Below are positions 1,864-63,224 of a stretch of DNA of 64,000 nt, in pieces (position 1 is the first letter of the stretch; every line of letters starts with the position of its first letter). The position numbers and the translations under genes were made by a program. The DNA comes from an uncultured Eubacteriales bacterium. Its GTDB lineage: Bacteria; Bacillota; Clostridia; Christensenellales; CAG-138. Under the pieces are notes generated by a model, which saw only the letters and a program-made list of their open reading frames with translations, ran no database searches and was not told where the DNA came from. The DNA lies in assembly GCA_902786465.1 (NCBI GenBank), contig CADACQ010000012.1, positions 24,562 to 88,561 on the forward strand, given 5' to 3'.

Positions 1864-1999
1864 GCCGCTTTTTCTTTTCGGTGAAAAGAAAAAGCGGCGG
1901 AAAAAGAAAAGCTTAAGAGGATAATACAGTCTTCGCAGATAAGCAATACTATTTCTTAAAGTTCTTTTGGTCTTCCCTTTTCTTTCAAGAAAAGGGAAG
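1864..1999 (-). repeat. Composite two-hairpin intergenic element, copy 1 (complete)
   Basis: Read on the minus strand: hairpin A (1999-1972, 13-bp arms CTTCCCTTTTCTT / AAGAAAAGGGAAG), the tail CCAAAAGAACTTTA, a variable spacer, then hairpin B (1898-1864, 16-bp arms GCCGCTTTTTCTTTTC / GAAAAGAAAAAGCGGC, 3-nt loop). The span is 136 bp. Equivalent units occur at 18100, 32185 and 63092. It lies between uvrA and the DUF218 gene. Confidence 0.85.
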
Positions 2000-2005
2000 A
2001 AAGCT

Positions 2006-4837
2006 TTAAATAATTCCTTTCAAATATTGTCCCGTGTAGCTCTTTTCGCATCGGGCTACCTGCTCCGGGGTGCCCGCGGCCACCACGGTGCCGCCCTCGT
2101 CGCCGCCCTCGGGACCGAGGTCGATGATGTAGTCCGCGGTCTTGATCACGTTCAGGTTGTGCTCGATGACGATGACGGAGCTGCCCCCGTCCACCAGCTT
2201 GTTGAGGATAGCGAGGAGCCGCTTCACGTCATCGGTGTGCAGGCCCGTGGTGGGCTCGTCCAGCACGTACAGGGTCCGGCCCGTGTCCCGGCGAGAGAGC
2301 TCGGTGGAGAGCTTGATCCGCTGGGCTTCGCCCCCCGACAGGGTGGTGGCGCTCTGGCCCAGCTTCACGTACCCAAGGCCCACGTCGCTCATGATCTCCA
2401 GCTTCCGGCGGATGCGCTCGTGATTCGCGAAGAAGGGCAGGGCCTCCTCCACGGTCATCTCCAGCACGTCGTAGATGTTCTTGCCCTTGTACTTCACCTC
2501 CAATGTCTCCCGGTTGTACCGCTTGCCGCCGCAGACTTCGCAGGGCACGTACACGTCGGAGAGGAAGTTCATCTCGATCTTCAATATGCCGTCGCCCCGG
2601 CAGGCTTCGCACCGGCCGCCCTTCACGTTGAAGGAGAAGCGGTTGGGCTTGTAGCCCCGGACTTTGGCGTCGGGGGTAGAGGCGTAGAGGTCGCGGATGA
2701 GGTCGAAGAGGCCCGTGTAGGTGGCCGGGTTGCTTCGGGGCGTCCGGCCGATGGGGCTCTGGTCGATGTCGATGATCTTATCCAGGGCCTCCGCCCCGTC
2801 GATGCCGTCGTGATCGAGGGGCTTGGTCCGGGCCCGGTTCAACGTCTTCAGCAGGGATTTCTTCAAAATCTCGTTGATGAGGGAGCTCTTGCCGGAGCCG
2901 GACACGCCCGTGACGCAGACGAACTCACCCAAGGGAATGTCCACGGTGATGTTCTTCAGGTTGTGGGCCCGGGCGCCGCGGATGGTCAGCTTCTTCCCGT
3001 TCCCTGGCCGCCGCACGGGGGGCACGGGGATGGAGAGCCGACCGGACAGGTACCCGCCGGTGAGGGAGTTTTCCGCGGCCATGATCTCCTGGGGCGTGCC
3101 TTGGGCCACCACCTCGCCGCCGTGGAGGCCCGCCTTGGGCCCGATGTCCACGATATAGTCGGCGCTGAGCATGGTCTCCTCGTCGTGTTCCACCACGATC
3201 AGGGTGTTGCCCATGTCGCGCAGGGATTTGAGCGTTTTCAGCAGCCGCCCGTTGTCCCGCTGGTGGAGGCCGATGCTGGGCTCGTCCAGGATGTAGAGAA
3301 CGCCGACGAGGCCGCTGCCGATCTGGGTGGCCAGGCGGATCCGCTGGCTCTCGCCGCCGGACAGGGACGACGCCGCCCGAGACAGGGTCAGATACCCCAA
3401 TCCCACGTTCAGCAGGAAGGTGAGCCGGGCGTCCAGCTCGTGGAGGATCTGCTGAGCGATGATGGCCTGGCCGGGGGTGAAGGTGAGGGCGCGCAGAAAC
3501 CGCAGGGCCTCCTTCACGGACAGGTCGCTGAGCTCCGCGATGTTGAGGCCGCCCACGGTCACCGCCAGGCTCTCCGGCTTCAGTCGCTTGCCGTGGCAGG
3601 CGGGGCAGGGCGTCCGGGACATGTAGCCCTCGATCTCGCCCTTGCTCCAGTCGCTGGTGCTCTCCCGATACCGGCGCTCCAGATTGTTGACGATGCCCTC
3701 GAAGTCGGCCAGGAACCGGCCGCCGGCAAACTCCTTCTCATAGACCACCTCCATCTTGTCGGGGCAACCGTAGAGGATGGCGTGCTGGACCTCCTGGGGC
3801 AGATCGCCGAAGGGCATGTCCATGGACACGGGCGCCCCCAGCTTCTTTTCGAAGTGGCGGCAGAGGGCGGACAGGTACATATGGGCGATGGACCCGCCGC
3901 TGGCGCTGTTCCAGCCGGAGACGGAGATGGCGCCCTCGGCGAGGCTCAGGCGCTTATCGGGCACCACCAGCTCCGGGTCCACGCGAAACAGCTCGCCGAG
4001 GCCCGTGCAGGTGGGGCAGGCGCCGTAGGGGTTGTTGAAGGAGAAGGCCCGGGGCTCCAGCTCTTCGAGAGAGATGCCGCAGTCCGGGCAGGCGTAGTTC
4101 TGGGAGTAGAGGGTGTCGGCCCCGTCCACTTCGGAAACGATGGCCAGGTTCTTGCCCAGGCGGAAGGCGTTCTCCAGGGAGTCGGTGAGGCGGCTCTCCA
4201 CGCCGGCCTTCACCACCAGCCGGTCGATGACCGCCTCGATGGTGTGCTTCTTCTGCTTATCGAGGGCGGGGGTCTCGTCGAGGTCGTAGACCTCCCCGTC
4301 CACCCGGGCCCGGACGTAGCCCTCCTTGCGCAGGCCCTCCAAAACCTTGGCGTGCTCGCCCTTCTTGCCCCGGATGCAGGGGGCCAGCAGCTGGATCTTC
4401 GTCCCGGCGGGCAGGTTCATGACCCGGTCCACCACCGTATCGATGCTCTGCTTCTCGATGACGCGGCCGCACTTGGGGCAGTGAGGGGTGCCGCAGCGGG
4501 CGTAGAGGAGGCGCAGGTAGTCGTAGATCTCCGTCACCGTGCCCACAGTGGACCGGGGGTTGTTGCTGGTGCTCTTCTGGTCGATGGAGATAGCCGGGGA
4601 CAGGCCCTCGATGGCGTCCACCTCGGGCTTCTCCATCTGGCCGATGAACTGGCGGGCGTAGGAGGAGAGGCTCTCCACGTACCGGCGCTGGCCCTCGGCG
4701 TAGATGGTGTCGAAGGCCAGCGAGCTCTTGCCGGAGCCGGACAGGCCTGTGAAGACGATGAGCTTGTCCCGGGGGATGGTGAGGTCGATATTCTTCAGAT
4801 TGTGTTCCCGGGCGCCCCGGATGACGATGTTGTCCAT
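2006..4837 (-). CDS. uvrA: Excinuclease ABC subunit A
   Basis: Damage-sensing ATPase of UvrABC nucleotide excision repair, cytoplasmic. The 943-residue length is normal. Two ABC modules are visible. The first has Walker [10 protein letters not shown] at residues 31-39 and signature [12 protein letters not shown]. The second has Walker [11 protein letters not shown] and signature [12 protein letters not shown]. Zinc-finger cysteines occur as CPKCG, CPDCG/CPTC and the UvrA-specific CEAC...CEVC module. The start [17 protein letters not shown] is typical of the family and has an AAAGGA site 6-8 nt upstream. No uvrB or uvrC is in the window. Single hairpin-type repeats flank both ends of the gene. 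Confidence 0.98.
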
Positions 4838-4862
4838 GATGATCCTTTTACGTTTTTTCTTT

Positions 4863-61821: not shown

Positions 61822-61912
61822 CGTCTTTTCTTGGTAAGAAAAGACGTCCAAAAGAACACAAATGGGAAGTATGGCTTGCGCTGTACTTCCCATTATTTTT
61901 CTTAAGCTTTTC
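61822..61912 (+). repeat. Composite intergenic element, copy 5, right end lost against meaB
   Basis: Hairpin A at 61822-61846 (CGTCTTTTCTT / AAGAAAAGACG), tail TCCAAAAGAACA and spacer, then CTTAAGCTTTTCTTATTCC. This matches the left flank of hairpin B in copy 1 but runs into the meaB stop codon (61913), so hairpin B is missing. The spacer also has GGGAAGTA / TACTTCCC, another small stem that could terminate the ECF transcript. Confidence 0.7.
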
Positions 61913-63055
61913 TTATTCCCCTTTAAACCTCTTATCCAGCGCCTCGGCGATCAGGCTCAGGGCCTTGGTGGGGGCCAGGGTTCCGGCTTTGACCTGGGCT
62001 TCCACGGACTCACGGGCAGCGGAGACCGCCTCGTCCCGGAGGAACAGGTTCATGAGATAATCCTGGGTCATCTCCTGGAGCCAGGTCAGGTTCTGGGCCG
62101 CCCGGCGCTTGTCCAGCTGGCCCGTCCGCTTCATCTGGTCGATGTACTGAAGGACCACGTCCCAGATCTCCTGGATGCCCTCGCCGGTGTAGGCGGAGCA
62201 GGTGTAGGCCTTGGTGGTCCAGCCCTCGGTGGCGGGCATAAGATAGTGGAGGATCTGTTCGTAGTCCGCCCGGGTCAGCAGCGCCTTCTGCAGGTTGTCG
62301 CCGTCGGCCTTGTTCACCAGGATCGCGTCCGCAAGCTCGATGACGCCCTTCTTCACGCCCTGCAGGTCGTCGCCGGCGCCGGTAAGGACCACCACCAGGA
62401 AGAAGTCCACCATGGACCGGACGGTGGTCTCGCTCTGGCCCACGCCAACGGTCTCCACGAGGATGATATCGTAGCCCGCGGCTTCCGCGAGAAGCATGGT
62501 CTCCCGGCTCTTGCGGGTGACGCCGCCCAATGTGCCGCCGGCGGGGGAGGGGCGGATAAAGGCGTTGGGCTCCTTCGCGAGCTGCTCCATGCGGGTCTTG
62601 TCGCCCAGGATGGCGCCGCCGGTGACGGAGGAGCTGGGGTCCACAGCGAGGACCGCCACCTTGTGCCCCTGCTGGCAGAGCTTGGTGCCCAGGGCCTCGA
62701 TGATGGTGGATTTGCCCGCGCCGGGGACGCCGGTGATGCCCACGCGGATGGCCTTGCCCGTGTAGGGGAGGAGCCGCTGGACGATGTCCTGAGCCATGGT
62801 GTAGTGCTTGGGCGCGTTGCTCTCCACCATGGTGATGGCCCGGGAGAGCTTCATGCGGTCCCCGGCCAGCACGCCCTCCACGTAGTCGTCGATGGTCATC
62901 TTGGGCGGGCGGGCGGAGCGGGTGGCGTCGGTGGCGCGGCGCAGCTCCTCATTGCTCTTGGTGATGCCGGTCATGACGAAGCTGGCGAACTTAGCGTCCG
63001 CCTGCTTCTCCTTGTCGATCCACTCGGGCTTGTAGGTGGTGTATTCCTCTGGCAC
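61913..63055 (-). CDS. meaB: Methylmalonyl-CoA mutase-associated GTPase MeaB (ArgK type)
   Basis: G-protein chaperone that gates B12 loading and protects methylmalonyl-CoA mutase. It is 380 residues. G1 GVPGAGKST, the DPSSSVTGGAILGDK switch region, ETVGVGQSE (G3), NKAD (G4) and a C-terminal dimerisation helix are present. Start GTG 63055, GGAGG 5 nt upstream. The extended N-terminus (~75 residues before the core) is common in this group. It is next to the mutase gene on the same strand, separated by a composite repeat. Confidence 0.96.
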   Translation of the reverse strand: MPEEYTTYKPEWIDKEKQADAKFASFVMTGITKSNEELRRATDATRSARPPKMTIDDYVEGVLAGDRMKLSRAITMVESNAPKHYTMAQDIVQRLLPYTGKAIRVGITGVPGAGKSTIIEALGTKLCQQGHKVAVLAVDPSSSVTGGAILGDKTRMEQLAKEPNAFIRPSPAGGTLGGVTRKSRETMLLAEAAGYDIILVETVGVGQSETTVRSMVDFFLVVVLTGAGDDLQGVKKGVIELADAILVNKADGDNLQKALLTRADYEQILHYLMPATEGWTTKAYTCSAYTGEGIQEIWDVVLQYIDQMKRTGQLDKRRAAQNLTWLQEMTQDYLMNLFLRDEAVSAARESVEAQVKAGTLAPTKALSLIAEALDKRFKGE

Positions 63056-63091
63056 GGGAGCCTCCTTTTTTCAAGGAATTATTTAAAGCTT

Positions 63092-63224
63092 GCGCCTTTT
63101 CTTGAAAGAAAAGGCGCCCAAAAGAACTTTAAGAATGAAACAAACTGTCGCAGTGGTCTCTACTATCTTCTTAAGTTTCTCTTTTTCCGCCGCTTTTTCT
63201 CTTTGTCTAAAGAGAAAAAGCGGC
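63092..63224 (+). repeat. Composite two-hairpin intergenic element, copy 6 (complete)
   Basis: Hairpin A at 63092-63117 (GCGCCTTTTCTT / AAGAAAAGGCGC), tail CCAAAAGAACTTTA, spacer, hairpin B at 63189-63224 (GCCGCTTTTTCTCTTT / AAAGAGAAAAAGCGGC). It lies between the mutase gene end and the meaB start, antisense to both. Confidence 0.85.

What the first reader, a model, noticed from the sequence alone, without database searches (positions are those of the whole stretch)
1864..63224. A dispersed 133-136 bp two-hairpin intergenic element with compensatory stem changes
Four complete copies (1864-1999 minus, 18100-18232, 32185-32318, 63092-63224), one half copy (4863-4898) and one cut copy (61822-61912) lie in intergenic DNA only. 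Each complete unit is hairpin A, CAAAAGAACTTTA tail, variable spacer of about 55 bp, then hairpin B. The core of A (TTTTCTTGAAAGAAAA) is constant, while the base of its stem changes in step on both arms (GGCCC/GGGCC, ACCAC/GTGGT, GCGCC/GGCGC, CTTCC/GGAAG, CGTC/GACG). B varies similarly (CTTTTC/GAAAAG versus CTCTTT/AAAGAG). The order, orientation and size are fixed, but orientation relative to genes is not. In scale it resembles ERIC or BOX elements, which have unrelated sequences. A folded RNA or a small mobile hairpin unit are both possible.
Basis: partly seen in the sequence, partly recalled or inferred. Interest (0 to 1): 0.72.

Follow-up and report, generated by a model that had tools for sequence, protein, structure and literature searches.

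The report
Paired hairpin repeats with third strand
This bacterium carries dozens of copies of a short DNA element between its genes, made of two facing hairpins whose side tails change in step with the hairpin stems, as if three strands were kept fit to pair together.

Summary
All named copies exist; a covariance model finds 76 distinct places (E<=1e-5) in the stretches read of the 1.99 Mb, 71% complete genome, and matches in all 12 genomes held for its genus. Each full unit is an inverted pair: hairpin A plus a purine tail, a variable middle that often folds too, then the tail and hairpin of B. Stem covariation far exceeds controls. The new finding: each tail is the parallel complement (mirror image of the purine arm) of its own hairpin's pyrimidine arm, and all three strands change together. 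94 of 114 inner sides match exactly over 7 bases, 0 of 121 outer sides do, and no permutation of tails reaches the observed fit, even within hairpin class. The rule also holds in other Clostridia. Triple-strand (Hoogsteen) pairing is the only pairing known to me that demands this. Orientation to genes is random and G-T pairs are about as rare as A-C mismatches overall, which points to DNA rather than RNA. Closest kind: E. coli intrastrand-triplex repeats (TMECO/BoxC). No REP transposase goes with the element. Sites are often shared by relatives, with some gain or loss. Folding in cells, and function, are unshown.

The parts
1861..2019 (-). full element, copy 1 (covariance model span)
1971..2000 (-). 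copy 1 hairpin A
1955..1970 (-). copy 1 purine tail of A (CCAAAAGAACTTTAAG)
1899..1912 (+). copy 1 purine tail of B (GGAAAAAGAAAAGC)
1864..1898 (+). copy 1 hairpin B (its purine tail follows it on this strand)
4863..4898 (+). half copy: hairpin B alone
4899..4912 (+). half copy: purine tail GGAAAAAGAGAAAC, mirror of its own stem
18079..18235 (+). full element, copy 2; site empty in three close relatives
18100..18125 (+). copy 2 hairpin A
18126..18139 (+). copy 2 tail of A
18198..18232 (-). copy 2 hairpin B (its tail precedes it on the + strand)
32166..32321 (+). full element, copy 3
32185..32210 (+). copy 3 hairpin A
32212..32220 (+). copy 3 tail of A
32212..32282 (+). copy 3 middle region, folds at z -2.23
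32284..32318 (-). copy 3 hairpin B
61801..61927 (+). cut copy 5: A, tail and middle hairpin, no B
61822..61847 (+). copy 5 hairpin A
61851..61858 (+). copy 5 tail AAAAGAAC
61861..61894 (+). copy 5 middle hairpin (15 pairs; also read as terminator-like)
63073..63227 (+). full element, copy 4; an element lies at this site in all 4 relatives read
63092..63117 (+). copy 4 hairpin A
63120..63127 (+). copy 4 tail AAAAGAAC
63189..63224 (-). copy 4 hairpin B

Best explanation
It is a dispersed intergenic DNA element built of two facing intrastrand-triplex units. Each unit is a pyrimidine arm, a small loop, its purine arm and, after a short stem base and linker, a purine tail that can lie in the groove of the stem as a third strand (A*A.T and G*G.C triads, antiparallel); on the opposite strand the same unit can form the pyrimidine-type triplex (T*A.T, C+*G.C). 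Shown: the anatomy, copy number, two-strand covariation, three-strand covariation, strand indifference, placement mostly between genes with a preference for convergent gene ends, and sites shared by relatives with some gain or loss. Inferred: that selection keeps the three-strand fold; that the fold forms in DNA when a strand is single or under-wound, during replication or transcription; that it acts as a structural boundary at gene ends that stalls or marks passing machinery or takes up torsion; and that it spreads rarely, by a route not found here.
For: Own tail against own hairpin: 94 of 114 inner sides exact over the loop-side 7 bases, 0 of 121 outer sides; at least 6 contiguous triads from the loop in 106 of 114 inner and 0 of 121 outer sides. 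Permuting tails: observed mean 6.82 of 7, permuted 5.99, sd 0.058, 300 permutations; within class B 6.887 against a best of 6.452, within class A 6.75 against a best of 6.635, 1,000 permutations each. In the 111 loci of the genome scan, tails found by an independent CTT anchor: 165 of 182 exact; 41 of 57 distinct combinations against 8.3 on average and 17 at most in 1,000 permutations. Change at one orthologous site: G007 reads TTTTTT / AAAAAA / AAAAAAC where the window and three relatives read TTTTCTT / AAGAAAA / AAAAGAAC, its flanks 95% identical to the window's. DNA rather than RNA: sense 26, antisense 24; G-T 42 against A-C 38 of 3,909 cells. Gene ends: convergent 26 of 79 placed units where 80 of 541 gene pairs are convergent, p 4e-5; divergent 3 of 79, p 0.009.
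Against: No measurement of the fold. A-rich purine-type triplexes are, from general knowledge, weaker than G-rich ones, and C+*G.C needs low pH. The third strand must pass a paired stem base of a few bp with a 1-3 base linker, so the second loop is 5-9 bases, wider than the 1-6 allowed in the published triplex search. Of the 20 inexact sides, by my reading 8 are six-triad stems with an equally short tail, 2 fit six triads with a longer tail, and 10 have a mismatch or damage (for example L120: stem type TCTCTTT, tail of the other type). Over 8 bases only 65 of 114 fit, since most A units have 7 triads. Low-complexity tails also give other relations: in the exact scan a direct copy of the 3' arm occurs 85 times beside 188 mirror tails (copy of the 5' arm 13, its reverse 2). 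In alignment A3 alone G-T exceeds A-C, 25 to 9. The sequences are related, so independent three-strand changes are fewer than the counts. In the window genus divergent placement is not lowered (8 of 49, p 1.0). No function was tested.
Confidence: 0.6

Rival explanations
1. REPIN- or MITE-like mobile element: two inverted hairpins are recognised as single-stranded DNA by a transposase, and the tail is a recognition sequence read together with the stem.
For: Inverted pair of hairpins with tails; clear inverted copies of A elsewhere (L033, L041, L102); 13 to 122 model matches in each of 12 genus genomes; copy 2 site empty in G003, G006 and G009 with only AGAAA between conserved flanks; a second site empty in the window's genome and holding a truncated element in G002, G003 and G008.
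Against: No Y1 transposase match in the window genome (71% complete) and in only 2 of 12 genus genomes, with no element core in the fetched flanks of those two; G002 is 97% complete, has none and has 82 matches. Other transposase families were not searched. No target duplication seen at the one clean site. A protein-read tail would not need to be the mirror of the stem.
Confidence: 0.2
2. RNA element: transcripts fold into hairpins with a U.A-U triple helix that protects or ends mRNA.
For: Pairing covaries; units prefer convergent gene ends; on either strand one of the two units of a full element has the pyrimidine tail that RNA can use; in alignment A3 G-T exceeds A-C, 25 to 9.
Against: No overall preference for G-U over A-C (42 to 38), no strand preference for units outside the genus (26/24), no Rfam family at cut-off, no T run after hairpins A or B in the window copies (terminator scan of 61700-63300: 3 found against 2.3 expected, one being the middle hairpin of the cut copy). 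[quoted passage not shown] (passage).
Confidence: 0.15
3. The pairing is kept by mutation, not selection: replication copies one hairpin arm from the other (palindrome correction), and the tail fit is a by-product of low-complexity A/T tracts.
For: Hairpin A is flipped in G003 at the copy 4 site (loop TC for GA), as template switching could do; stem changes are almost always complete on both arms; other tail relations also occur in low-complexity DNA.
Against: Template copying cannot make a parallel complement, so the tail would not follow. Composition is controlled by permutation within class and by the outer flanks, 0 of 121.
Confidence: 0.08

Closest known systems
Intrastrand triplex motif repeats TMECO / BoxC / PIT elements of E. 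coli (Holder et al. 2015, PMC4666352; abstract, sections 10, 15, 16, 18 and found passages read)
   Same: Pyrimidine arm, loop, purine arm, loop, purine third strand; reported as always intergenic, without strand bias, not tied to known mobile elements; five inverted pairs of two types in E. coli K-12.
   Different: TMECO is G/C-rich, 9 triads, no extra stem base, second loop 3 bases. Ours is A/T-rich, about 5-12 triads, has a variable paired stem base and a wider second loop, and is usually a composite with a middle region. In the parts read no covariation test is reported.
REPINs / REP-RAYT systems (PMC3116915, PMC2817692: search listing only; PMC3733652: term search only, none of five clostridial or Firmicutes terms found)
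   Same: Inverted pair of short palindromes, many copies, between genes.
   Different: No RAYT tied to it; the tail follows the stem in mirror fashion, which I know of in no REP (recalled).
ERIC and BOX elements (recalled)
   Same: Size and modular hairpins.
   Different: Sequence unrelated as far as recalled; not tested here beyond the Rfam scan.

Membership tests
Intrastrand triplex motif repeats (general kind) | three tracts able to form at least 6 matched triads | tested here: met
   106 of 114 inner sides;
Intrastrand triplex motif repeats (general kind) | both loops 1-6 bases in the published search | tested here: not met
   A units of the window have a second loop of 7-9 bases; many units elsewhere have 5-6. 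A limit of that search, not of the chemistry
Intrastrand triplex motif repeats (general kind) | triplex shown by spectroscopy or footprinting | not testable with these tools
   no experiment
TMECO / BoxC | G/C-rich pattern CCCTCNCCC..GGGNGAGGG..GGGNGAGGG | tested here: not met
   copies as read against the pattern quoted
REPIN / RAYT | two inverted palindromes | tested here: met
REPIN / RAYT | RAYT (Y1 transposase) in the genome, flanked by the repeats | tested here: not met
   drafts of 68-97% completeness
Rho-independent terminator | G+C-rich stem followed by a T run | tested here: not met
   hairpins A and B: scan of 61700-63300 only; the other copies by eye. The middle hairpin of the cut copy does look terminator-like
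Known Rfam RNA family | score at or above gathering cut-off | tested here: not met
   whole window; one copy, permissive: 19 hits at E<=1, all well below their cut-offs
Mobile element | occupied and empty orthologous sites | tested here: met
   copy 2 and a second site
Mobile element | target duplication or terminal inverted repeats at exact ends | tested here: inconclusive
   one clean site, none seen

The most novel reading that the evidence does not exclude
A family of bacterial DNA repeats in which natural selection preserves a DNA triple helix, shown by three-strand coevolution: many different triad strings, each with matching stem arms and tail (41 distinct exact combinations), across Clostridia, with the same unit in a few archaeal records. 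It would be comparative-genomic proof that an intrastrand triplex is a selected form in cells.
Probability: 0.5. Interest if true: 0.82.

Novelty: new variant of a known kind. Interest (0 to 1): 0.64.

Why it matters
Triplex-capable repeats in bacteria have been known by motif search and by test-tube folding, but whether the third strand matters in the cell has been open. Three-strand covariation is the kind of evidence that settles such questions for RNA stems, and here it can be read from natural variation: dozens of copies per genome and many types. It makes the function of triplex DNA testable by changing one, two or all three strands. The paper searches showed me no description of this repeat; only the open library and only their listings were seen (one search found two papers that hold CAAAAGAACTTT, on mammalian topics by title, not read).

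Tried and rejected
REP transposase as partner: Y1 family not found in the window genome and in 10 of 12 genus genomes, the window's included; flanks of the two found hold no core. Known RNA family: none at cut-off; a permissive scan of one copy gave 19 hits, all well below their cut-offs. Ordinary terminators: no T run after A or B; scan of one stretch at background. The first gene-context script was wrong in this G+C-rich genome because the longest ORF is often antisense; it gave 28 of 51 elements overlapping ORFs and was replaced by a codon-position score, still crude. The first version of the cross-genus test chose the wrong loop register and gave 19 of 62 exact (permutations 5.5 on average, 12 at most); it was corrected by taking the longest stem because the printed rows showed TTTTCTT+GA split as CTTTTCT+TGAA. 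Folding of the middle is not universal: 4 of 12 above z -2. Two more synteny stretches were read by gap lengths only: at the two full-length sites of L239, element-sized length is kept in G003 and G010 at one and in G007 at the other; other combinations were unclear. The hand-made class split and the hand-made list of genus loci left out are mine.
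Full report
WHAT IS THERE. In 64 kb the A pattern occurs 5 times and the B pattern 5 times, each with 0.00 expected from 100 dinucleotide shuffles. The window lies in an unnamed 1.99 Mb draft genome, 58 contigs, 70.8% complete. A covariance model built from 21 copies, 7 from this genome and 14 from other records, finds 142 matches at E<=1 and 81 at E<=1e-6 there; opposite-strand matches of one place are counted apart and only 150 of 607 candidates were scored. 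In the stretches I fetched they come to 76 distinct places at E<=1e-5. All 12 genomes held for the genus have 13 to 122 matches at E<=1e-6. The 21 copies were picked for an exact A core, so the model leans to that type.

ANATOMY. Reading the full copies in order: a leader near AGGAATTATTTAAAGC in many copies; hairpin A; a tail CAAAAGAAC; a middle region; a pyrimidine tract; hairpin B. Read on the other strand, B is also a hairpin followed by a purine tail, GGAAAAAGAAAAGC or GGAAAAAGAGAAAC, so the element is two facing hairpin-plus-tail units. In other genomes (L033, L041, L102) the second unit is close to a plain inverted copy of A. The half copy at 4863-4898 is one B unit with its own tail; the copy at 61822 has A, tail and middle hairpin but no B. 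Of 12 middle regions that I chose and folded as DNA, 8 have z<=-2, 2 of the 5 in the window among them; copy 2 has z +0.79.

TWO STRANDS. On the 21 copies 98.3% of cells pair, 63 cells have both sides changed (shuffles 18.7, 0 of 500 as high), and slid controls fall to 57-67% paired; the count of further pair types is not raised (125 of 500 shuffles as high). Two larger sets agree on all five measures: 386 cells against 95, 224 against 53, 0 of 500. Those two alignments were fitted to the model's structure and include opposite-strand matches, so they lean to it. Over both, G-T cells number 42 and A-C cells 38 among 3,909, but the split is 25 to 9 in A3 and 17 to 29 in A4. An RNA stem would be expected to tolerate G-U much better than A-C (general knowledge); overall this one does not.

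THREE STRANDS. Scanning for pyrimidine arm, loop, purine arm, gap and tail showed that the tail is the arm's parallel complement; that scan required an exact fit and is not a test. The test used hairpins defined without the tail. From 163 model matches (61, 102) came 124 loci and 356 hairpin sides. Taking hairpins 60-135 bases apart gave 114 distinct inner and 121 distinct outer sides. Over the loop-side 7 bases 94 of 114 inner sides fit exactly and 0 of 121 outer sides do; over 8 bases 65 of 114; permuted tails give 5.99 of 7 on average against 6.82 observed (sd 0.058, 300 permutations). At least 6 contiguous triads from the loop side are found in 106 of 114 inner and 0 of 121 outer sides; at least 5 in 112 and 24. 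Since A and B differ, I repeated the permutation within class, a split made by me on the arm: B 55 of 62 exact, permutations 19.6 on average and 32 at most; A 39 of 52 exact, permutations 28.2 on average and 35 at most. The A class is weaker because most A units share one core. Of the 20 inexact sides, by my reading 8 are six-triad stems with an equally short tail, 2 fit six triads with a longer tail, and 10 hold a mismatch or damage; L230 is a shortened unit whose stem runs into its tail.

Types include TTTTTCTC/AAAAAGAG, CTTTTCTC/GAAAAGAG, TTTCTTTT/AAAGAAAA and CCCTTTTT/GGAAAAA. My first version of this test had the wrong loop register and gave 19 of 62 exact. A plain scan for exact third tracts in the same loci gave 188 mirror tails, 85 direct copies of the 3' arm, 13 copies of the 5' arm and 2 reversals, so low-complexity DNA makes other relations too; the permutation tests are the better guide.

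The change can be seen at one site. At the copy 4 site, flanks 92-97% identical, the window, G003, G008 and G010 have TTTTCTT stems with AAAAGAAC tails, and G007 has TTTTTT, AAAAAA and AAAAAAC. At the copy 1 site G010 has TTTTTCTT with AAAAAGAAC and G007 TTTCTT with AAAGAAC, in shortened elements.

WHAT IT MEANS. A stem arm can be copied from its partner by a polymerase; a parallel complement cannot. Among pairings known to me, a tail that mirrors the purine arm is what reverse Hoogsteen triads need (A*A.T, G*G.C), or on the other strand Hoogsteen triads (T*A.T, C+*G.C). I therefore infer that the three-strand fit is selected. It is an inference from sequence; the fold has not been measured, and triads next to a paired stem base with a short linker are geometrically demanding.

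PLACEMENT. With a crude gene caller, 7 of 50 elements in 21 stretches overlap a called ORF by more than 40 bases and 43 do not; of 49 with a gene on both sides, 27 lie between codirectional genes (14 sense, 13 antisense), 14 convergent, 8 divergent, against gene pairs 250, 54 and 58. For 103 A units outside the genus (loci left out by a hand-made list): 7 overlap ORFs, 17 are at edges, and of 79 placed 26 are convergent, 3 divergent, 26 sense, 24 antisense, against gene pairs 394 codirectional, 80 convergent, 67 divergent; p 4e-5 for convergent and 0.009 for divergent. In the genus convergent is also raised (p 0.01) but divergent is not lowered (p 1.0).

HISTORY. Copy 2 is absent in G003, G006 and G009, where five bases AGAAA stand between conserved flanks, and absent in G010 and G007 with other short sequence; G002 and G008 could not be compared there. 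No target duplication is evident. A second site, near window 6290-6327, is empty in the window and holds a truncated element in G002, G003 and G008. Copy 1 is full in G002, G005 and G008, compound in G004, reduced in G007 and G010, and absent in G003 and G009. Copy 4 has an element in all four relatives read. G002 and G008 share the three elements compared at 98-100% identity with flanks at 95-100%, while copy 4 is 66-80% identical to its orthologues. So sites are often shared, slowly restructured, sometimes gained or lost. At L240 7297-7479 the neighbouring segment is inverted in G003 relative to G000 while G010 reads straight through, an inversion end at an element unless it is an assembly fault; Holder et al. 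linked their motif to rearrangement (abstract).

KIN. The nearest kind is the intrastrand triplex repeat (TMECO/BoxC/PIT), reported as intergenic, unbiased in strand, not tied to mobile elements and sometimes set as inverted pairs of two types. Ours looks built like it and fits the general definition except for the loop limit of that search, but it is not TMECO. REPIN-like in layout, it lacks the transposase. Exact A cores occur in 10 of 75 family genomes (the window's own included, the rest at least 80% complete), in 3 of 24 genera, and in records named Oscillibacter, Pseudoflavonifractor and other Clostridia.

Noticed in passing
window 840-1007, minus strand: Tandem glycine riboswitch aptamers (Rfam RF00504, 61.6 and 45.3 bits).
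   Followed up: no
L009 1107-1142, L029 1676-1710, L035 5772-5807: The same A unit with tail occurs in three archaeal records (ANME-1, Nanoarchaeia, Methanophagales) with a shared gap GCTTTACC; transfer, contamination or parallel origin not tested.
   Followed up: no
L022 1330-1562 and L014 762-843: A units in direct tandem at about 100 or 50 base spacing in one Clostridia draft genome.
   Followed up: no
L215 (G003) at the copy 4 site: Hairpin A has its loop reversed (TC for GA) while the stem and tail are kept, as if the hairpin had flipped.
   Followed up: partly
L240 7297-7479: An element lies at the end of an inversion between G000 and G003; G010 is colinear through it. An assembly fault is not excluded.
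   Followed up: partly
window 2006-2019: In copy 1 the leader of the element supplies the stop codon of the upstream gene (ORF 2006-4837, minus); in relatives without the element that gene must end elsewhere.
   Followed up: partly
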